In this document: one piece after another, positions 5,398-16,752 of the stretch | Position numbering within the stretch: the stretch's first letter is position 1 | How the letters are laid out: every line of letters starts with the position of its first letter | Position numbers and translations under genes: made by a program | Source of the DNA: Oscillospiraceae bacterium | GTDB lineage: Bacteria > Bacillota_A > Clostridia > Oscillospirales > WRJC01 | Length of the DNA stretch: 16,752 bases | NCBI GenBank assembly: GCA_009785015.1 | Contig: WQXD01000051.1 | Location: 1 to 16,752, forward strand | Direction: 5' to 3' | Notes under the pieces: model-generated | Database searches by the model: none | Told to the model about the DNA's origin: nothing | The model's input: the letters and a program-made list of their open reading frames with translations, nothing else

Positions 5398-6894
5398 TTA
5401 TCCGATTTTATCCAATATTTTCGCGATATTTGCTTCCCACTTGGGCACCTGCTTTTCCAATGTGGAGACAAACGTGTTTTTATTGGAGCCGATGCTGCGC
5501 AGAATTACGCCGGGGTGGTCGATTATGTTGGTGTAGAGCATTCCGAAATTGAAGATCGCCCCGTCGCGTATCAAATCGATCATTTCGCCCGATTCGTCGT
5601 CGCGCGTAAACTTGTTTTTGAGGGCCACGTCGTAAAAGGCGGGTATGACGAGCTTGTAGCTCTCGGCGCACATCGCCTCGGTTATCAGCGCGGCGTTTTC
5701 GGCGTTTTTGACGTCGGCCGGGATTGCGAGCACTGAAAATCCGTTCTGCGGATACACGTGGTATTTTTCCTGGGCCTCGTTGTATTTGGGAAGGGGCAGT
5801 ATGCCGAAATCGGTGTCGAATGAGCGCAGTTTCTTCGAGTTGCCGAGCGTGTCAGGCAAAAACATGGCGCGGTTGTCGTGGAACAGCACGTCGAGGGGGT
5901 TGTCGGGAGTGGACACGCTTTCGCCCTGGTGGATGACGCCGGGGTTATCCACGATAAAATCGAACACCCGGTTCAGCTTGGCTATGTTGAGCTCGGAATC
6001 CAGCACAATCACCGGGAGCCCGTCGTCCCCTTTTTGGGTGATCGCTATGTCGAAGGCCGCCATGAACAAATCCACCAGGTTGCCCGTCTCCGTGGCGTAA
6101 CCGAATTTGTCCGCTTTGGTCATTTTGCCGTCGCCGTCGAGATCCTCGTGGATGTCCCTGACGATTTTGTCGAGGTAGTCGATAGTCCATTTGCCCTCGC
6201 GCGCTATTTTGTAAAAATCGTCCTGTATGCCGTAATCCTGCACCATCTGTTTGTTGAAATATATGCCGTACATATATTCCCACATGGTCAGCGACAGATC
6301 CCCCGCCATTATATACAGCTTGCCGTTCACGGTGAGCTCGTTGAACACCGACTCGGCCCACCACGGCTTTGTCTGATCGATATACGGCAGCGAGTTTATA
6401 TCGTACAGCCAGCCGTCGGTGGTCGCGCTCATGAAATACGCCTGATACCCGGCGACCAGATCGTAGGCCCCGTCGCCCGCCAGCACGGAATTTTTGAACG
6501 CGTTCATGAAAATGGAGAGGCTGGACCAGTCGCCCATCACTTCGGTCACGTCGATTTCGATGTTGAAGCGATCCTCCACTTTGCGGTTTCGCTTATACAC
6601 GTTGTCATTGATCACCTCGCCCGTCTCGCCCTCGCTCAAAAACTCGTAATTGCGCTCGGAGCGCGACAATATGGAAAACCTGTCCCCGCCGAGATCCGCC
6701 TCCGGCAAATCGTCGCCTATATCCCTGGGGTCGCCTGCGGCCTCCGCCGCCTGATCGGACGCCCCGTCATCGGATGCGTTTTCGTTTTTTTCATCTTTGG
6801 AATTGTCGCCCGCGCAGGAAAGCAAAAAACCGCACAACAATAAAACAGCCAGAAGCAGCGCCGCGAGCCCTTTTTTTTGTTTCATTTGTTTCAT
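5398..6894 (-). CDS. Extracellular solute-binding lipoprotein (SBP1)
   Basis: This is a 498-residue protein from ATG 6894; a TTG at 6900 or ATG 6885 are alternative starts. A GAGGGG ribosome site at 6906-6911 precedes them. The signal peptide is Lys-rich then hydrophobic (about 8-26) with lipobox LLSC and lipidated Cys27, followed by an acidic low-complexity linker (about 28-65). The body is a large sugar-ABC type binding protein. A D-L-D-G-D-G-K loop at 251-257 looks like a calcium-binding EF-hand loop. A late block (ALKNKFTRDDESGEMIDLIRD, about 424-444) is shared with the two other binding lipoproteins at 7894 and 11378. SBP1 resembles SBP3 most closely (GDLSLT, YDLVAGY and PYIDxxxPWW are shared). 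It is probably a receptor for an oligosaccharide or glycoside, anchored on the outer face of the membrane. No cognate importer permease is present; the following ABC genes look like an exporter. Confidence 0.85.
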   Translation of the reverse strand: MKQMKQKKGLAALLLAVLLLCGFLLSCAGDNSKDEKNENASDDGASDQAAEAAGDPRDIGDDLPEADLGGDRFSILSRSERNYEFLSEGETGEVINDNVYKRNRKVEDRFNIEIDVTEVMGDWSSLSIFMNAFKNSVLAGDGAYDLVAGYQAYFMSATTDGWLYDINSLPYIDQTKPWWAESVFNELTVNGKLYIMAGDLSLTMWEYMYGIYFNKQMVQDYGIQDDFYKIAREGKWTIDYLDKIVRDIHEDLDGDGKMTKADKFGYATETGNLVDLFMAAFDIAITQKGDDGLPVIVLDSELNIAKLNRVFDFIVDNPGVIHQGESVSTPDNPLDVLFHDNRAMFLPDTLGNSKKLRSFDTDFGILPLPKYNEAQEKYHVYPQNGFSVLAIPADVKNAENAALITEAMCAESYKLVIPAFYDVALKNKFTRDDESGEMIDLIRDGAIFNFGMLYTNIIDHPGVILRSIGSNKNTFVSTLEKQVPKWEANIAKILDKIG

Positions 6895-6924
6895 ATGCAA
6901 AATTACCCCTCATTAATTAAAAAT

Positions 6925-7893: not shown

Positions 7894-9402
7894 GTGAAAA
7901 TTTTAACAAAAGTTGTCGTATTTATGCTGTGTTTTGCGCTGGCGGTCGCGCCGGGCATACTGTCAGCCTGCGGCGACGGCGGCAAAACTCCGGAAGGAAA
8001 TACGGAGGCAAAGGGGGAAGAGGCGGCGGACGGCGGCGCCGATAAGGCGGGAGACGGGTTGTTTTACGACAAAGTGCCCGCATTGAATTTCGGCGGATAT
8101 GAGTACAGGATACTGCAGGGGACCTACGACAGGGGCGGGGTGATCATGTTCCCCGAGGAACAGATCGGCGACGTGCTCAACGACGCCATGTTCGACCGGG
8201 ACAGGGGCATCGAGGAGCGTTTCAATATCACAATAAAAGCCGAGACAATCGACCTTTTCCAGCTTCAGCCGGCAGTCGTCAAAAATGTAAAATCGGGGAC
8301 GGACTCCTACGATGAATACATGATGATAGACAGGGACGCATACGCGGCGGTTGGCTCGAATCTGCTGTACCAGTTTGACAAACTGCCGTATATAGACCTT
8401 GAGCAGCCCTATTGGTGCAACCTCCCCAACCGGCAGCTGACAGTCGAAGGCAAACTTTACTGGGGATTCAACGACAACATGCTCTCCTTTTTCGAAGCGG
8501 CCGTCGTGACGTATTTCAACAAGAAACAGGTGGCGGACCTGGGGCTGGAGGATCTGTACGGATTGGTCCGCTCAGGCGCCTGGACCCACGACAAATTCTA
8601 TGAATTCGCGAGGGCGGCGGCGAAGGACACGGACGGAGACGGCAAAATGACCGGGGCGGACCACTGGGGGCTTGTGAGCGAGACGGATTATCTGTTCCCG
8701 TGTTTCTGGATTTCGGCGGGTATAAACTTGGTGGAAAAAGACAGCGGCGACATACCGTATTTCGCAGTTCCGGGCAATCAGAAGTTTTTTGAAATAGCCG
8801 AGCGGGTGATCGACGAATTCAACTCAAAAGAGGGGATATTCTTAAATTCGCAGGGGACTTCCACATTGTCGGCATACGGAAACAATTCGGCGGATTCGAG
8901 GATAGCGTTCTTTCGGGACGGCCACTGCCTTTTCTCCGTCGGCGAAACCTCCGAGGTGATAAAACTGCGGGATATGCCCGACGATTTCGGCGTTGTGCCT
9001 TTTCCGAAATATACCAAGGACCAGCCCCAGTACTTCACGAGGGTCTGCGTCGGGTTCCCGTTTGTGATACCCGCGACGATCACCAATCCCGAAATTGCCG
9101 GCGCGGTTATGGAGGCTATGGCGTGCGCGGCGCGCAATCAGATAATACCGGCATATTACGAATCGGCGCTGAAAAACAAATACTCGCGCGACGCGGACAC
9201 CGCCGAGATGCTCGACCTCATATTTGACACGAGGGTGTACGATCTGGGCGATACGATCTGGTGCATGACGATAAGAATCGGTTACACCGGCGTATTTACG
9301 AAGGGCGAAAACACTTTCGCTTCATTCACCGAAAAAAACGCGGAAAAATATTCCAAGGACATAGATAAATCCATAACCGCAATTCTGGATAACAACAGAT
9401 AA
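7894..9402 (+). CDS. Extracellular solute-binding lipoprotein (SBP2)
   Basis: This is a 502-residue protein with a GTG start at 7894, placed 9 nt after AAAGGG. The signal peptide (about 1-25) ends in lipobox LSAC with Cys26, followed by a Gly/Glu/Ala-rich linker (about 27-55). The mature part is a type I extracellular solute-binding fold of the large (about 500-residue) class. NFGGYEYRIL at about 65-74 opens the N-lobe, DTDGDGK at 245-251 is a calcium-loop-like motif, and the C-terminal block YYESALKNKYSRDADTAEML (421-440) is shared with SBP1 and SBP3. It is the most divergent of the three copies. It is first in the operon and is followed after 32 bp by a GH36-like alpha-galactosidase, so an alpha-galactoside or related oligosaccharide is a reasonable guess for the ligand. 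Importer permeases are absent from the window. Confidence 0.87.
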   Translation: MKILTKVVVFMLCFALAVAPGILSACGDGGKTPEGNTEAKGEEAADGGADKAGDGLFYDKVPALNFGGYEYRILQGTYDRGGVIMFPEEQIGDVLNDAMFDRDRGIEERFNITIKAETIDLFQLQPAVVKNVKSGTDSYDEYMMIDRDAYAAVGSNLLYQFDKLPYIDLEQPYWCNLPNRQLTVEGKLYWGFNDNMLSFFEAAVVTYFNKKQVADLGLEDLYGLVRSGAWTHDKFYEFARAAAKDTDGDGKMTGADHWGLVSETDYLFPCFWISAGINLVEKDSGDIPYFAVPGNQKFFEIAERVIDEFNSKEGIFLNSQGTSTLSAYGNNSADSRIAFFRDGHCLFSVGETSEVIKLRDMPDDFGVVPFPKYTKDQPQYFTRVCVGFPFVIPATITNPEIAGAVMEAMACAARNQIIPAYYESALKNKYSRDADTAEMLDLIFDTRVYDLGDTIWCMTIRIGYTGVFTKGENTFASFTEKNAEKYSKDIDKSITAILDNNR

Positions 9403-9434: not shown

Positions 9435-11351
9435 ATGTGGAGAAATGAAATCGCGGATCTGAAATCAGGAAAACTGCCCTTCAGATTCAATTATGACGGA
9501 AAATGCTCAAGCGGATTTTTGGATCTATGGGAGAGGGAGACGACGGACAATTCGGTTGCCTATTTTGAAAACAAAAAAAACGGCGGCCTTGTGATAAACG
9601 CGGAGCTGACCGCCTATGAGTCCTGCCCCGCTTTCGATTTGAAGATAACCTTGGAGAACACCGGCCAAACAAACACAAAAATGATCGACGTTTTCTCGAC
9701 GCTGTATTTCACCGTCGGCTCCCCCGTAAAAAGCGGCGGCTACGCGGTGCATAAGGCGATGGGAGGCCTCTCCACGCCCGAGGATTTCGTACAGGGCGAC
9801 GCCATGGTGTACGACGAAGAAAACTTTATCATTGAGACCGCCGGGGGCAGAAGCTCCAACAGGGATCTGCCCTTTTTTCAAATCGATACGGGAAGGGGAA
9901 AGATAATCGCCGCCGTGGGCTGGACGGGGCAGTGGAAATGCGAACTGAAAAACCGAAACGGAGAGCTCACGCTTGCAGCCGGGATGCCGAGGTCTCATTT
10001 TGTCGTGTACCCCGGCGAAAAACTGGTGCTCGGCTCGATGGTGGCCCTGTTCTGGGAAGGCGACCCGGATGAAGCCAACAACGCCTTTCGGCAGCTGCTG
10101 CTCGAACGGTATATCCCAACCCTGCCAAACAGGGGCAAGGAGCCGTATATTTTCTGCAACACGTGCTTTACCCGCGGCGGCGGCTGGCTGAACGAATGCG
10201 ACGAACAAAACCAGATAAGCCTCATAAACGCCCTTGAGCCGCTCGACTGCGAGAGCGTGATCACGGACGCAGGCTGGTTTACCGGGGGCTGGCCTTTCGG
10301 AGCGGGAAACTGGGACGCCGATCCCCTCAAATATCCAGGCGGCATAAAACCCGTGGCGGACGCCGCGAAATCGCACAACATGAAATACGGCCTGTGGTTT
10401 GAGCTCGAAAGGGCGGTCGCGCAGACCGAGCTCGCGAAAAAGCACATCGGCTGGCTGCTCAGAACAGCCGCCGGCGAGCCGCGCGAAAACGAGAATATGC
10501 TCCTCAACCTCGGAATCCCCGAAGCCGCCGACTATATATACGCCATCCTCGAGGACAAAATAACAAACGACGGCATCGAATGTTATCGGCAGGATTTCAA
10601 CATGGACCCCCTTGTTTACTGGGATACCAACGATACCCCAGACCGCGTCGGCGTCACGGAGATAAAATATATAAACGGCCTGTACGCCTATCTCGACAGG
10701 ATAAGAAAGAACCATCCCGGCATATTCTTGGACGGCTGCTCTTCCGGGGGCAGGAGGATCGATATCGAAATGCTCAAGCGCTTTCACACCCATCAGAAAA
10801 CGGACCTGTGGTTTGATTCGGCCGTCGACCAGAACTCTTTGTTTTCGCTCTCGCACTATATCCCCAACGCGGCCTTCACCGCGCATATAAACCGGTATGA
10901 CGATTACAGCTTCAATTCCGTCATGGCGGCCACGTTATGCCTCGGCTGGATTGCGGACAGCGAAGAGCAATTTATGGGAAACGGTGTTTTCGAACCCGGC
11001 CGGGCAGTTGAACTCATCGAAAGATACAAAACAGCGCGCCCGTATTTAAACCGCTCCTTTTATCCCCTCACGGCCCCCGACAGCAAACCCGGCGCGGCGA
11101 TCGCCTTCGAGTTCTTCGACAAAGAGAAGGATTCCGGGGTGATATTCGTATTCGCGAGAGAGCGGAGCGCAAAAGAAAAAATGACAATAAGCCCGAAAGC
11201 GCTGAAAGACAACTCAAACTACATTTTAACGGATCTCGCAACGCATGAAAAGAAAACCGTGAGCGGCAAGACTTTAAAATCCGGATATACGGTGGATATA
11301 ACCGGACTGCCGTTTTCCGCGGTTATCCATATCGAAGGCAAAGTGATTTGA
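9435..11351 (+). CDS. GH36-like alpha-galactosidase, divergent active site
   Basis: This is a 638-residue cytoplasmic protein (no signal peptide) starting at ATG 9435, with GGGAGG 11 nt upstream. The N-terminal 230 residues form a beta-sandwich domain, a TIM barrel follows, and a beta domain ends the chain, as in GH36. Barrel markers are TDAGWF at 278-283, W293 with DPLKYPGGIKP after it, GLWFELERA at 319-327, YRQDFN at 384-389 with probable nucleophile Asp387, and GCSSGGRRID at 434-443. GH36/GH27 enzymes cleave terminal alpha-galactosides by a retaining mechanism. The usual RSD or SDNTD block carrying the acid/base Asp is replaced by DLWFDSAVD (457-465), so the acid/base could be Asp461 or Asp465, or the specificity may differ. 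The gene sits between two binding-lipoprotein genes and the spacing suggests one transcript. The family is firm; galactose specificity is only likely. Confidence 0.83.
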   Translation: MWRNEIADLKSGKLPFRFNYDGKCSSGFLDLWERETTDNSVAYFENKKNGGLVINAELTAYESCPAFDLKITLENTGQTNTKMIDVFSTLYFTVGSPVKSGGYAVHKAMGGLSTPEDFVQGDAMVYDEENFIIETAGGRSSNRDLPFFQIDTGRGKIIAAVGWTGQWKCELKNRNGELTLAAGMPRSHFVVYPGEKLVLGSMVALFWEGDPDEANNAFRQLLLERYIPTLPNRGKEPYIFCNTCFTRGGGWLNECDEQNQISLINALEPLDCESVITDAGWFTGGWPFGAGNWDADPLKYPGGIKPVADAAKSHNMKYGLWFELERAVAQTELAKKHIGWLLRTAAGEPRENENMLLNLGIPEAADYIYAILEDKITNDGIECYRQDFNMDPLVYWDTNDTPDRVGVTEIKYINGLYAYLDRIRKNHPGIFLDGCSSGGRRIDIEMLKRFHTHQKTDLWFDSAVDQNSLFSLSHYIPNAAFTAHINRYDDYSFNSVMAATLCLGWIADSEEQFMGNGVFEPGRAVELIERYKTARPYLNRSFYPLTAPDSKPGAAIAFEFFDKEKDSGVIFVFARERSAKEKMTISPKALKDNSNYILTDLATHEKKTVSGKTLKSGYTVDITGLPFSAVIHIEGKVI

Positions 11352-11377
11352 TTTTAAAGAAAGGGGCGTACACACCA

Positions 11378-12904
11378 ATGAAGATTTTTGCAGATCATAT
11401 TTCGCCGGCAAAGCGGTTTTTGCTCGCCTGTCTGCTTGCCGCCATGATTTTGGCCGTGTTGTCGTGCAGTCAGGATACAAAAACCGGCCAAAACAACAAT
11501 GAAGAGACAAAACCGCCGGAGGCCGCCGGCGAAGGGAGCGGCGAAGAGGACGCCGGGGCGGGGCGGGAAAACACGCCCGACGGCGTGCCGCCCGATTTGA
11601 AATTTTCGGGAAAAACTTTCACAATCCTCTCAAGGGAGGAGTTCATGTTCGGCTATGAAATGGGCGTGGACGAAGAAAACGGCGATATCGTAAACGACGT
11701 GATTTACAAAAGAAACGTCTCAGTCGAAAACAGGTTCGACATAAAAGTGGACGTCATAAAGATCCCGGGGATATGGGGCCAGGAAGCCAGTTTCAACAAC
11801 ACCGTGAAAAACTGTGTCAAAGCGGGCGACAATTTGTATGATTTGGTGGCGGGATACGCCTACTTCATAACCCCGCTCGCCGCGGAGGGCAATTTTTTGA
11901 ATTGGGCAAAAGCGCCGTATATAGACAACAGCGCCCCGTGGTGGAACCTTGAGCTCGTGGAGAAAACGACCATCGACGGAAAACTGTACTTCATAACCGG
12001 CGATCTGAGCCTCACTTTCGTGTCGAATCTGACCTGTCTGTATTTCAACAAGCGCATACAGAGCGAATACGAAGCCGAAGATGTGTATAAGTTGGTTTTG
12101 GACGGCAAGTGGACTTACGACAAAATGTTCGAGGTGTGCCGGGGGGTATACAGGGACCTAAACGGCGACGGCATAAAAAACGAGGGCGATATATTCGGGG
12201 CGGGGCTGGCCCACGGCAATACCTGCGAGGCGGTATTCACCTCGCAGGACCAGCAAATCACCGAAATAGGCGACGACGGCTACCCGTATTTCGTATTCAA
12301 CTCCCCGAGGACGATCAAAATAGTGGAAAACATGATGACGCTTTTCTTCGACAACGCGGGGATATATTCATTCGCCGAAACCACGGAATACCCGGAGAGG
12401 ACCATATTCAAAAACGGCCAATCGCTTTTTATGAACGGGTATATCAACACCGCCGAGGACCTCCGGGACATGACCGATGATTTCGGGGTTGTGCCATATC
12501 CCAAATTCGACGAGACGCAGAAAAAATACAGATCCCGCTCGCAGGACGCCTTCTCGTTTTTCAGCGTTTTGTCGACATGCGACGACTATGAATTCGCGGG
12601 GGCGGTCACCGAGGCGCTCGCAGCCGAAAGTTACCGCTTCGTGACGCCCACATATTACGAAACGGCGCTGAAAATCAAATACTCGCGCGACGATACCACC
12701 TCTCAGATGCTCGATATAATAAGGGAGGGGGCGCAGTTCGATTTCGCCTATGTGTATTCCAACAGCCTGAACAACATAGTGCATATTTTCAGGAATCTGA
12801 CCGACAAAAAAAGCACGGATTTCGTCTCGCTCTATGAAAAAAGCGAATCGCAGTACAAAAAGGCGCTGGACAAGCTGATCGCCGCCTATCAGGAACTCGA
12901 ATAA
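11378..12904 (+). CDS. Extracellular solute-binding lipoprotein (SBP3)
   Basis: This is a 508-residue protein from ATG 11378, preceded by GAAAGGGG about 12 nt upstream. An in-frame TTG at 11348 that overlaps the GH36 stop codon is a less likely start because it would put ten polar residues before the signal peptide. The signal peptide (about 11-29) ends with VLSC and lipidated Cys30, and a Glu/Gly-rich linker follows to about 70. The body closely follows SBP1: FTILSREE, VNDVIYKRN, YDLVAGY, APYIDNSAPWWN and GKLYFITGDLSLT. A DLNGDG loop (260-265) corresponds to the calcium-loop-like motif of the other two copies. It shares the late block YYETALKIKYSRDDTTSQML. As a second receptor in the same operon as SBP2 it probably binds a different but related glycan. 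Confidence 0.86.
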   Translation: MKIFADHISPAKRFLLACLLAAMILAVLSCSQDTKTGQNNNEETKPPEAAGEGSGEEDAGAGRENTPDGVPPDLKFSGKTFTILSREEFMFGYEMGVDEENGDIVNDVIYKRNVSVENRFDIKVDVIKIPGIWGQEASFNNTVKNCVKAGDNLYDLVAGYAYFITPLAAEGNFLNWAKAPYIDNSAPWWNLELVEKTTIDGKLYFITGDLSLTFVSNLTCLYFNKRIQSEYEAEDVYKLVLDGKWTYDKMFEVCRGVYRDLNGDGIKNEGDIFGAGLAHGNTCEAVFTSQDQQITEIGDDGYPYFVFNSPRTIKIVENMMTLFFDNAGIYSFAETTEYPERTIFKNGQSLFMNGYINTAEDLRDMTDDFGVVPYPKFDETQKKYRSRSQDAFSFFSVLSTCDDYEFAGAVTEALAAESYRFVTPTYYETALKIKYSRDDTTSQMLDIIREGAQFDFAYVYSNSLNNIVHIFRNLTDKKSTDFVSLYEKSESQYKKALDKLIAAYQELE

Positions 12905-13931: not shown

Positions 13932-16166
13932 ATGTTGAAATTTCCGGAGAATTACGAAAACGGCAAAAACTTATACAAACCCCTGAAACTCAAACACGGC
14001 TACACTTTGGACTATTTCGATTTCGAAGGCCTCGGCTCCGAGGGCGGCTTTGAGCAGGTATGCCATACAATCGAGCAGAGCATAGACGGACTGATAGAAA
14101 TAGGCTACGGCGGAATCGTCACAAACATATCGTTTCGCAGCTACTTTGAAGACGAAACCGCAAAAAGGCTGCTGAAACATAAAATCGAGTATTGCAAGAA
14201 AAAAGGGCTGCGCGTATGGCTCTACGACGAAAGAGGGTATCCCAGCGGCAAGGCGGGGGGCCTGACCTTGAAAAAGAATCCCGATTTTGAAGCCAAAGGG
14301 CTTGCCGGGATGTTTGAAACTGTAAAACCCGGCGAAAGCCTCTCGATAAAATTTCCGCGCGGCCATGAAAAAGTGGTCGCCGCCTATTCGTATGAGGGCG
14401 CCTGCTTTGACGACATGGACATAAATTCCGCGGTATCACTGACGGGAAACCTGAGCGGCGGATTTGACCTGGATTATACAAATGACACCGAAAAGACCCG
14501 TTTTGTCGCGTATTTCGTCTCAAAGAGGCTTTACGAGGGGACGCACGCCGAGCGAAACTATGACGACGCCAGGCGCTATCCCGATCTGATGAACAAAGAG
14601 GCGGTGGGCGAGTTCATTTCAAACACATACGAAGCCTACAAAGAAATAGCCGGGGAATATTTCGGGAACACGATAGAGGCGGTTTTTACCGATGAACCCT
14701 CATGCGTGGCATATTATCTCCCAAAGCTGCCCGCCGTGATTCACGACCAACCCGACGAATCCATACCGCTGCTTCCGGTTTTGAACTGGACGAACGATTT
14801 CAAAGCGAGATTTCAAAGGCTTTGCGGGTATGATATAGACAAATATCTGCCCTATGTGTTCGGCGGCAATACGGCACGGGCTTTCGATGTGAGGGAGGAT
14901 TTCCATTATGCCGTGTCTAAATTCTACGAAGAGGCGTTTTTTGCCCAAATCGGAGATTTCTGCCGAAAAAACAATGTGGCGTTTTCGGGTCATCTTTTAA
15001 TGGAGGAAAATTTATCGCTGCACCCGCCGTTTGAGGGCAATTTTTTTCATCAGCTCAAACACATGCAGTACCCCGGAATAGACGTTTTAACCACGATTCC
15101 GGAATCGATTTTGAATCACATGGCGCAGGTCCCCAAACTTGTGTCGTCCGCGGCGCTGCTGAGCGGCAAAAAACACGTCATGAGCGAGGCGTCGGGATAT
15201 CAGGAGACAATCGCCGTGGGCAAAGAGAACTTGAATTACAGGCAGATGATCGGGGCCTGCGCGCTGCAGTACGCTTTGGGGGTGGACACAATCGTCTCAT
15301 ATTATCAAAGAGGGGCAATAGACAAGCCCGATCACCGCCTCTGGAACGAAACGCTCGGGCGCATAGCCGCGATAATGTCAGCCGGAACCCAAAAGGCGAA
15401 AATTCTGCTCTATTATCCGATAGAAACGGCGGCCAGGTATTATCTGCCGCAATACAACTGGAGCGAAGAAGGGCAGAAATACTTGACAAAATATGATTTA
15501 TCATTTGCCAAAAAGGGCGCGGAGGCGGCGGCTTCATGGGCCAAACTGTCGCGCTCGCTGTTAAAGGGCCAATTGGACTATTTTATGACGGATTTTGAGC
15601 TTCTGGCAGCTTCAAAATTCGAGGGGGGAAAAATAAAGATAGGCGGAAACGAAAACGATTTTGAAGTTTTGGTTCTGCCGGTCTGCGATATGACCGAAAA
15701 GCTGCAAAAACTCATAAAAGAACTAAACGAACAAAACATAACGGTGTTATCCGTCGCGCCCGGGTTCGGAGACGGGATAAAAAAAGCGGAAAAATTGGAA
15801 AAATCGGAAAATTTCAAAATATATAAAGACGAAAAGGATCTGATAAAAAACCTCAAATCGATGATAACCCCCGACGTAGTCCTGAATGGTGAATCCGGCA
15901 GTACGGACAATATAGTCTACATGAAAAAAGAAAACGAAAACGGGTTTGATTTTCTTTTTGTAAACGCGGCCGGCAGCGCCGCCGCAGCCGAAACAAAAAT
16001 ATACCTCGGCGAGAGCGATAAAAAAGATTACAAGCTCTTTATGTACAATCCGGAAACAGACGAAGAAATCCCGTTTTGTTATGAAATAACGGGCGGCAAG
16101 GCGGTATTTGATTTGCATTTGCCGGCATACGGATTTATTTTTATTTTTTTTCGTTTTACCCCTTGA
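13932..16166 (+). CDS. Putative TIM-barrel glycoside hydrolase, GH106/clan-A-like, 744 residues
   Basis: The start is ATG 13932 with GGAGG (13916-13920) 11 nt upstream, 22 bp after the URO-D-like gene. There is no signal peptide. The first part shows a beta/alpha barrel: GYGGIVTNISF (58-68), then VWLYDERGYPSGKAGG (95-110), a motif of a poorly studied group of large hydrolases annotated as GH106-like or alpha-rhamnosidase-like. Candidate catalytic carboxylates are Asp254/Glu255 in FTDEP (252-256) and Glu419 in HVMSEASGY (415-423). Their placement at barrel strands 4 and 7 would match clan-A retaining enzymes; this is inference. A second domain (about 480-630, ILLYYPIET and VLVLPVCDM) has a glutamine-amidotransferase-like or Rossmann pattern seen in beta-galactosidase relatives. 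A beta-rich tail ends with LPAYGFIFIFF. It is the last gene of the operon and probably releases a sugar from an imported glycoside; specificity is unknown. Confidence 0.7.
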   Translation: MLKFPENYENGKNLYKPLKLKHGYTLDYFDFEGLGSEGGFEQVCHTIEQSIDGLIEIGYGGIVTNISFRSYFEDETAKRLLKHKIEYCKKKGLRVWLYDERGYPSGKAGGLTLKKNPDFEAKGLAGMFETVKPGESLSIKFPRGHEKVVAAYSYEGACFDDMDINSAVSLTGNLSGGFDLDYTNDTEKTRFVAYFVSKRLYEGTHAERNYDDARRYPDLMNKEAVGEFISNTYEAYKEIAGEYFGNTIEAVFTDEPSCVAYYLPKLPAVIHDQPDESIPLLPVLNWTNDFKARFQRLCGYDIDKYLPYVFGGNTARAFDVREDFHYAVSKFYEEAFFAQIGDFCRKNNVAFSGHLLMEENLSLHPPFEGNFFHQLKHMQYPGIDVLTTIPESILNHMAQVPKLVSSAALLSGKKHVMSEASGYQETIAVGKENLNYRQMIGACALQYALGVDTIVSYYQRGAIDKPDHRLWNETLGRIAAIMSAGTQKAKILLYYPIETAARYYLPQYNWSEEGQKYLTKYDLSFAKKGAEAAASWAKLSRSLLKGQLDYFMTDFELLAASKFEGGKIKIGGNENDFEVLVLPVCDMTEKLQKLIKELNEQNITVLSVAPGFGDGIKKAEKLEKSENFKIYKDEKDLIKNLKSMITPDVVLNGESGSTDNIVYMKKENENGFDFLFVNAAGSAAAAETKIYLGESDKKDYKLFMYNPETDEEIPFCYEITGGKAVFDLHLPAYGFIFIFFRFTP

Positions 16167-16191
16167 CATTTGCTGTGACATCTGTTATAAT
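16163..16191 (+). promoter_or_regulatory. Perfect-consensus sigma-A promoter of the GntR gene
   Basis: TTGACA (16163-16168) and TATAAT (16186-16191) are both perfect and are 17 bp apart. The stop codon of the upstream hydrolase (TGA 16164-16166) lies inside the -35 box, so coding end and promoter are fused. Transcription would start near 16198. The regulator therefore has a strong promoter of its own besides any read-through from the operon. Confidence 0.85.
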
Positions 16192-16203
16192 AGATATATA
16201 ACA
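16183..16203. promoter_or_regulatory. Candidate GntR operator: 7-bp inverted repeat over the -10 box
   Basis: TGTTATA (16183-16189) and TATAACA (16197-16203) are exact reverse complements with a 7-bp spacer, and they cover the -10 box and the predicted start site. GntR/YtrA regulators are dimers that commonly repress their own promoter through such sites. The sequence is A/T-rich, so chance symmetry is a concern. Confidence 0.45.
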
Positions 16204-16237
16204 AGTACACGGCCGTGTTTTGTCATCACTCAACTTC

Positions 16238-16245
16238 AAGGAGGT
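16238..16245 (+). promoter_or_regulatory. Ribosome binding site that fixes the GntR TTG start
   Basis: AAGGAGGT is a full-strength Shine-Dalgarno sequence placed 9 nt before TTG 16255. The frame is open upstream to 16108, but that would place the promoter inside the gene and reads through the hydrolase 3' end, so the TTG is the credible start. Confidence 0.8.
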
Positions 16246-16254
16246 AATTTCGGA

Positions 16255-16494
16255 TTGATTATCGAAATAAACACACAGAGCCCCTCGCCCATATACGAGC
16301 AGATCCGCGACCAGATCGTGCTGGGCATGGCGGCGAAAAAATTCATCCCGGGCGAAGCGCTGCCCTCAGTGCGGAACCTCGCCGCGGATCTCGGCGTAAA
16401 TTTCCACACTGTAAACAAAGCGTATTCCATGCTCTGCGAGGAGGTAACAGAAGAGTTACGAAAAACATATAAAAAGCAGGGAAAAGCTATATAA
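16255..16494 (+). CDS. YtrA-type GntR transcription regulator, 5' exon interrupted by a group I intron
   Basis: From TTG 16255 the protein reads as a typical YtrA-subfamily GntR winged-helix N-terminus: SPSPIYEQIRDQI, the GEALPSVRNLAADLGV helix-turn-helix, then NFHTVNKAYSMLCEE at residues 49-63. YtrA-type proteins usually continue with a Gly and the wing and reach about 110-130 residues. Here the similarity stops after codon 63, and an unspliced frame adds VTEELRKTYKKQGKAI before TAA 16492-16494, giving 79 residues that lack the wing and dimerisation part. The break coincides with the proposed 5' splice site after T16445, inside codon 64. If the intron splices, a full regulator would be made from a 3' exon beyond the window; if not, the product would be a truncated DNA-binding domain. 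The expected Gly would be Val (GTN) if the junction is exact, a small inconsistency. Position after a sugar operon suggests it controls that operon or itself. Confidence 0.72.
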   Translation: MIIEINTQSPSPIYEQIRDQIVLGMAAKKFIPGEALPSVRNLAADLGVNFHTVNKAYSMLCEEVTEELRKTYKKQGKAI

Positions 16495-16752
16495 ATATGT
16501 TAAGATAGTAATAAACGACAGCCTCCCATGTCCATAAAGGGCATGGAGCGGCACAAACGAAAAATGTGTCCAAAATTCATTGAATTGCTGGAAGTTCCTA
16601 AAGCTACGCAAGCTACAACGCAATACCGCGCAGGTATAGACGTGACAGCGGCGAAAGCAAAAAAAATTGCGTAGATAGTGCAAGGTTAAATCCTAAACAC
16701 CAAGACAAGAATGGATAATCAGCAGCGAAGGCCGAAAGGCAACGTTCAACGA
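16446..16752 (+). ncRNA. Group I self-splicing intron, 5' half (possible IStron; continues beyond window)
   Basis: A group I intron folds into a catalytic RNA that cuts itself out after a U paired with a G in helix P1. Here the exon end GGAGGU (16440-16445) pairs fully with an internal guide GCCUCC (16521-16526), with U16445.G16521 as the wobble at the junction. P2 is a 7-bp hairpin (16527-16533 with 16539-16545, loop AUAAA). Conserved core element P is GAAUUGCUGGAAGUUCC (16582-16598). Element Q is AAUCAGCAGCGAAG (16717-16730). P4 pairs UUGCUG (16585-16590) with CAGCAG (16720-16725). P6 is GCC-GAAA-GGC (16731-16740). Element R begins GUUCAACGA (16744-16752) and is cut by the window edge. The 118 nt between P and Q would be a long P5 extension. 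P3, P7 3' strand, P8, P9 and the terminal G are not visible. No plus-strand gene is seen inside the visible part. In clostridia such introns are often the left part of IStrons with a tnpB gene. Confidence 0.8.

What the first reader, a model, noticed from the sequence alone, without database searches (positions are those of the whole stretch)
16446..16752. Group I intron interrupting a GntR transcription-regulator gene
Directly seen: the regulator similarity breaks at codon 63/64, and the following 307 nt contain, in the right order, a guide sequence complementary to the exon end, a P2 hairpin, and matches to the conserved P, Q and R core elements, with a compensating P4 pairing (UUGCUG with CAGCAG). 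Known: bacterial group I introns are mostly in tRNA, rRNA and phage genes; chromosomal protein-coding hosts are uncommon apart from IStrons. A regulator whose synthesis depends on RNA splicing would couple a sugar operon to intron activity.
Basis: partly seen in the sequence, partly recalled or inferred. Interest (0 to 1): 0.85.

Follow-up and report, generated by a model that had tools for sequence, protein, structure and literature searches.

The report
Contig-end IStron inside a GntR gene
The end of this contig is the first half of a self-splicing intron, most likely of a known kind of mobile element called an IStron, sitting inside a bacterial regulator gene; it is real, but a new copy of something already described.

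Summary
The last 308 bases (16445-16752) are the 5' half of a group I intron inside codon 64 of a short GntR gene. Rfam Intron_gpI matches with 39.5 bits, E 1.2e-8, cut off by the contig end; a complete relative scores 78.9 bits whole and 43.7 when cut at the same base. In an alignment with 18 relatives, 26 of 55 pairs have two-sided changes, and the window keeps 51 of 55.

It is most probably not an exception to IStrons but one of them. The exon ends GAGG in 20 of 20 sequences with a readable boundary. Of 15 relatives with enough DNA downstream, 12 have TnpB, 2 lack TnpB but keep its guide-RNA motif and the element's 3' end, and 1 is a bare intron. This fits published group B (IS607-type) IStrons (PMC4227781).

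The 3' half, TnpB, 3' exon and splicing were not seen. Coupling to a sugar operon has no support; the GntR gene has its own 12/12 promoter-like site. One small extra: splice guide and insertion target differ together between two subfamilies.

The parts
16163..16191 (+). sigma-70 promoter-like site (TTGACA, 17, TATAAT), overlapping the end of the preceding ORF; likely promoter of the GntR gene
   Evidence: 12 of 12 matches, (2 sites found at 9/12 or better; 1.5 expected in shuffles); function inferred
16255..16444 (+). 5' exon: N-terminal 63 codons plus one base of a short GntR-family regulator gene, TTG start, ending GAGGAGG
   Evidence: Pfam GntR E 1e-9; 11 of 11 homologues read continue with glycine then Y or F; coordinates
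16445..16752 (+). 5' half of a group I intron, probably the left end of a group B IStron, cut by the contig end
   Evidence: RF00028; 20-of-20 GAGG exon end; 51 of 55 pairs kept
16445..16494 (+). translated read-through from the exon: 16 intron codons, then a stop, before P2
16521..16526 (+). splice guide (IGS) GCCTCC, can pair with exon end GGAGG plus the intron's first U
   Evidence: 6 contiguous pairs in the window; overlaps the P2 strand, so the two pairings compete
16523..16548 (+). P2 hairpin
   Evidence: 10 pairs, one with a two-sided change, which is in the window
16585..16593 (+). P element with the 5' strand of P4
16717..16730 (+). Q element with the 3' strand of P4 and the start of P6
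16744..16752 (+). R element (GTTCAACGA), 5' part of P7, last bases of the contig

Best explanation
A group B (IS607-type) IStron has inserted beside AGGAGG in a GntR gene, after the first base of the glycine codon that follows codon 63. The part on the contig is the 5' half of a group I ribozyme (shown). The rest should be P7-P9, a TnpB gene, a RAGATH-18-type guide RNA and a 3' end in TGCAACGG (inferred from relatives). In the transcript the ribozyme would cut after the exon GG, guided by GCCUCC, and join GAGGAGG to the rest of the gene, so the regulator is still made (inferred). Ribosomes entering unspliced RNA meet a stop at 16492-16494, before the guide and P2 (shown by sequence; its protective role is inferred). 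The contig ends here probably because such elements are repeats (inferred).
For: Truncated Rfam match with a cut-relative control. Covariation: 26 of 55 pairs with two-sided changes, 0 of 500 shuffles as high on five measures; the window keeps 51 of 55, 15 with both sides changed. Exon end GAGG in 20 of 20 readable boundaries, where only GG was required by the script. TnpB similarity downstream in 12 of 15 relatives with enough DNA; 3' end TGCAACGG in 12 of 15. Joined flanks of 3 of 3 elements tried give open frames across the junction. 8 of 20 relatives' contigs also begin or end inside the element; 7 of 10 genomes or records searched hold more than one match. The window is the whole contig. 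G+C is 51.7% before the intron and 41.3% in it.
Against: No IS part, 3' splice site or 3' exon is on the contig. One relative of the same family, L024, is a bare intron with the same GAGG exon end and no TnpB, RAGATH-18 or TGCAACGG. Two more (L016, L027) lack TnpB. Identity to relatives in the core is only 65-75%. The core also matches phage and Enterococcus plasmid sequences in part, so the core alone does not mark an IStron. At gathering thresholds Intron_gpI was reported for only 1 (L013) of the 11 family loci searched, though L018 and L024 score above the cut-off when searched alone with laxer filters. No splicing was observed.
Confidence: 0.85

Rival explanations
1. A stand-alone group I intron of the same family without an IS part, splicing from the GntR transcript.
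For: L024 is such a copy: Intron_gpI 61.9 bits over the whole model, no TnpB, RAGATH-18 or TGCAACGG found.
Against: It is 1 of 15 relatives with enough DNA, and the least similar to the window in the core (65.2%); 12 of 15 carry TnpB.
Confidence: 0.1
2. A decayed IStron or intron fragment that no longer splices, leaving the GntR gene broken.
For: The 3' half is unseen; 4 of 55 pairs are not standard in the window; several relatives have shortened elements or partial TnpB.
Against: 15 two-sided compensating changes in the window itself indicate selection on the structure; P2, P4, P5 and the guide are intact.
Confidence: 0.04
3. Assembly chimera: an IStron end joined by mistake to a GntR gene.
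For: It lies at a contig end, where repeats mislead assemblers.
Against: The junction is the family's own target at the element's own first base, within the gene at a glycine codon where GG is expected.
Confidence: 0.01

Closest known systems
Group B IStrons (BcISt1, LsISt1, SrISt1, CbISt1-4; Tourasse, Stabell and Kolsto 2014, PMC4227781)
   Same: Insertion after a GG-ending site such as GAGG; intron starts with U that is not exon; group I ribozyme at the 5' end; intragenic insertions common; partial copies at scaffold ends.
   Different: Only the 5' half is visible; 3' end, IS genes, P7.1/P7.2 and P9 are untested; host unidentified.
IStrons of the A. noterae / T. creatinophila / Clostridium kind found here (L010, L018, L013, L022, L026, L028)
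   Same: Same exon end and intron start, same P2-R structure, 69-75% identity in the core for these six.
   Different: These are seen whole, with TnpB, RAGATH-18 and a 3' end in TGCAACGG.
IS607 TnpB systems guided by RAGATH-18-derived RNA (PMC11061315, passages)
   Same: Target beside the element matches AGGAG, one of the two TAMs used there.
   Different: Neither TnpB nor guide RNA is on this contig; the one mention of 'intron' in that paper was not among the passages shown.
Stand-alone group I introns of phages (Twort-like hosts; name recalled)
   Same: Partial core matches in 13 phage records, 69-74% identity.
   Different: The matches cover 32-75% of the query; none was checked for the GAGG|TAAC junction.

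Membership tests
Group I intron (RF00028) | P, Q and R core elements with P4, P5, P6 pairing | tested here: met
Group I intron (RF00028) | P7 3' strand (S element), P8, P9 and terminal G | not testable with these tools
   contig ends at R; the S element GATATAGTC is present in 15 of 15 relatives with enough DNA
Group I intron (RF00028) | Guide sequence pairing with the 5' exon end, with U-G at the splice site | tested here: met
   6 contiguous pairs including U-G; the U is the intron's first base, as in group B IStrons
Group B IStron | Insertion after a GG-ending site | tested here: met
   GAGGAGG|
Group B IStron | Intron starts with U that is not part of the exon | tested here: inconclusive
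   T at 16445; homologues show a glycine (GGN) codon, which allows GAG GAG GGT as well, so the gene itself does not decide; the relatives' joined frames take the T as intron
Group B IStron | 3' end in CGG | not testable with these tools
   contig ends; TGCAACGG in 12 of 15 relatives
Group B IStron | IS607-type ORF A and/or TnpB (ORF B) downstream | not testable with these tools
   contig ends; TnpB in 12 of 15 relatives; ORF A was not searched for
Group B IStron | Class IA2 features (P7.1, P7.2, P9.0-P9.2) | not testable with these tools
   lie beyond the contig end
Short (YtrA-like; label recalled) GntR regulator | N-terminal GntR winged helix, total length near 120 residues | tested here: inconclusive
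   PF00392 met; best NCBIfam model has 125 positions but 45.8 bits is below its cut-off of 200; the C-terminal part is off the contig

The most novel reading that the evidence does not exclude
The IStron has become a switch for the regulator: splicing of the GntR transcript competes with TnpB and guide-RNA use of the same RNA, so regulator level reports the state of the mobile element. A milder version, better supported here, is that IStron insertion target and splice guide evolve together (GAGG|U with GCCUC; GGAG|C with GCUCC).
Probability: 0.04. Interest if true: 0.6.

Novelty: new member of a known kind. Interest (0 to 1): 0.2.

Why it matters
It adds a copy of a known chimeric element from an unidentified metagenomic host, and shows why such copies turn up as half introns at contig ends that fall below the Rfam cut-off. 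The joint difference of target and splice guide between two subfamilies suggests a simple rule for which sites an IStron can enter without harm.

Tried and rejected
Rejected: chance resemblance (Rfam and blastn E-values, covariation). Judged unlikely: a non-IStron exception (1 of 15 relatives), a dead fragment, a chimera. Set aside for lack of evidence: coupling to a sugar operon.

Led nowhere: the window's genome is not held, so further copies and the other half of the element could not be sought. A viral contigs pattern with a fixed four-base spacer found nothing. The alpha-galactosidase search did not place the organism: of the 120 proteins listed of 1006, the first is the window's own, the next six (68-82% identity) are unnamed, and the best named one is a Kiritimatiellaeota MAG at 65%. 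The GntR search with a 64-residue piece returns only short proteins (176 found, 120 listed, 11 read). The nine loci share only 25-48 bases with the window and were not used. One search gave matches in 19 of 391 genomes of the class of G003, but 11 of the 19 have nothing better than E 6e-5, so no prevalence is claimed. In one search, L066 and L070 do not show the GGAG|CAAC junction and were not counted. L014 and L029 were left out of alignment A2 because they are cut before R.

Full report
Observation. The frame from TTG 16255 matches Pfam GntR over residues 14-63 and then breaks. I read 11 of the 176 homologues found: all 11 continue with glycine and then Y or F, 10 of them as E-G-(Y/F) and P0002 as G-G-Y. 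The window reads GAG GAG G|TAACAG. The break therefore falls inside the glycine codon after codon 63, and the foreign sequence starts at 16445.

Intron. At gathering thresholds Rfam gives nothing for the window. With an E-value threshold on 16200-16752, Intron_gpI matches 16522-16752 with 39.5 bits, E 1.2e-8, cut at the 3' end. L018 scores 78.9 bits when whole and 43.7 when cut at the same base. The fast-filter search is weak for this family altogether: it reported Intron_gpI for 1 (L013) of 11 family loci (L010; L011, L012, L013, L016, L018, L022, L024, L026, L027, L028). The window is a whole contig of 16752 bases: its proteins P0001 and P0121 are each listed on one contig of that length.

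Relatives. A pattern made of the P2 strand and the P element found 17 loci in genome contigs and 2 in viral contigs; with the A. noterae locus this makes 20, L010-L029. By record title the 17 are Hathewaya massiliensis (2), Tissierellia MAG (2), Clostridium sp. KNHs214 (4), Haloimpatiens lingqiaonensis (3), Tissierella creatinophila (1), Clostridiaceae MAG (1), Clostridium sp. MAG (1), Clostridium liquoris (2) and Anaeromonas gelatinilytica (1). The pattern contains GCCTCC, so the guide's invariance is forced. My boundary script required GG|TAAC; the two exon letters before GG were free, and they are GA in 20 of 20 (the window and 19 loci; L015 starts inside the element). L023's boundary lies 208 bases from P2, with other DNA in between.

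Structure. Eighteen relatives that reach R were aligned with the window. RNAalifold gives 55 pairs, 26 with two-sided changes. Against shuffles: 97.8% of cells paired (mean 88.7, sd 0.5), 86 two-sided cells (mean 19.0), 0 of 500 as high; slid partners give 31-42% paired. The structure was derived from this same alignment, which favours it over slid versions, and shuffles ignore relatedness. The window forms 51 of 55 pairs, 15 with both sides changed against the relatives' commonest pair and 2 with one side changed; slid versions form 13-19.

Which element. Five of the 20 loci are cut within 320 bases after the start of P2 (L014, L017, L020, L023, L029). Of the other 15, 12 have TnpB similarity downstream on the same strand (L010, L011, L012, L013, L015, L018, L019, L021, L022, L025, L026, L028), some of it partial. 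L016 and L027 lack TnpB but keep RAGATH-18 and the 3' end. L024 is a bare intron (Intron_gpI 61.9 bits over the whole model; no TnpB, RAGATH-18 or TGCAACGG). The 3' end TGCAACGG is present in 12 of the 15; L012 and L019 stop before it, and L024 lacks it. RAGATH-18 was found in 9 of the 11 of these loci that were searched for it; L015, L019, L021 and L025 were not searched. RAGATH-18-derived RNA guides IS607 TnpB, and AGGAG and GAGGG are the TAMs used in that work (PMC11061315, passages). Joining the flanks of L010, L018 and L028 gives open frames across the site (3 of 3 tried). By recall, not by a search, L018 reads as phosphofructokinase and L028 as selenide-water dikinase; the L010 5' exon scores 26.3 bits against the Flavin_Reduct cut-off of 27.

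Contig breaks. In 8 of the 20 relatives the contig begins or ends inside the element (L012, L014, L015, L017, L019, L020, L023, L029), and 7 of the 10 genomes or records searched hold more than one match, up to 8. Tourasse et al. report the same: 115 partial copies at scaffold ends, taken as unassembled full IStrons.

Known counterpart. Tourasse et al. 2014 (PMC4227781; abstract, sections 14, 15 and 18 and passages; [quoted passage not shown] The window fits those features that it can show. They also note that in-frame insertions usually create a stop at the insertion point; here the stop comes 16 codons into the intron (16492-16494), still before the guide and P2.

Mechanism. Inferred: IS607-type insertion beside AGGAGG, then excision of the ribozyme from the transcript, joining GAGGAGG to the rest of the glycine codon. 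Nothing here shows splicing. The guide GCCTCC overlaps the P2 strand, so the two pairings compete; Tourasse draw an internal loop beside the U-G pair in group B.

Regulation. A 12-of-12 promoter-like site lies at 16163-16191; two sites at 9/12 or better were found and 1.5 expected. It suggests that the GntR gene starts its own transcript. Its operon and targets are not visible.

Guide and target. A second subfamily met in the blast searches (L063, L064, L065, L067, L068, L069) has the junction GGAG|CAAC and the guide GCTCCC: 5 contiguous pairs in 6 of 6, against 2 with the first subfamily's guide; a GAGG|U exon against the second guide breaks after 3. GAG|CAAC and the guide letters were required by the script; the G before GAG was free and is present in 6 of 6. 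GAACCAG as 3' end was found in 5 of 6, and one joined frame (L063) is open across the site. Tourasse describe CsISt1 with an AG site and a CAG end, so the subfamily's kind is known; the joint difference is not stated in the sections and passages that I read.

Other matches. Parts of the intron core also match 20 Enterococcus plasmid records (74-75% over 37% of the query in the 19 that were listed) and 13 phage records; these were not examined further.

Literature limits. A 2024 study of competition between transposon-encoded introns and guide RNAs is recalled; its title phrase occurs in three papers listed, none of which was opened.

Noticed in passing
L010-L029 against L063, L064, L065, L067, L068, L069: Two IStron subfamilies differ in insertion target and splice guide together: GAGG|T with GCCTCC, GGAG|C with GCTCCC.
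   Followed up: partly
L022 element start; L016 element start; L069 near 380: Some elements sit directly in a GGAGG or GGAG that looks like a ribosome-binding site just before an ATG, so splicing would restore the spacing between the two.
   Followed up: no
L024:271-700: A bare group I intron of the same family with the IStron's GAGG exon end but no IS part: a possible ancestor or deletion product.
   Followed up: partly
L016 and L027: Short elements (897-927 bases) without TnpB that keep the intron, RAGATH-18 and 3' end: possible non-autonomous copies.
   Followed up: no
L023 (minus strand), between element start and P2: The 5' part is about 130 bases longer than in relatives and contains an inverted repeat: possibly a small insertion in the intron.
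   Followed up: no
window 5398-6900 (-), 7894-9402 (+), 11348-12904 (+): Three ORFs of about 500 residues that look like related lipoprotein solute-binding proteins; the two submitted to Pfam (7894-9402 and 11348-12904) gave no family at E 0.001.
   Followed up: no
window 13932-16166 (+): 744-residue protein with only a weak, below-cut-off match to Glyco_hydro_106 (22.6 bits, cut-off 29).
   Followed up: no
L010 record NZ_CP154629.1: A 2.63-Mb replicon filed as a plasmid of Acetoanaerobium noterae with 4 annotated features; its size suggests a chromosome.
   Followed up: no
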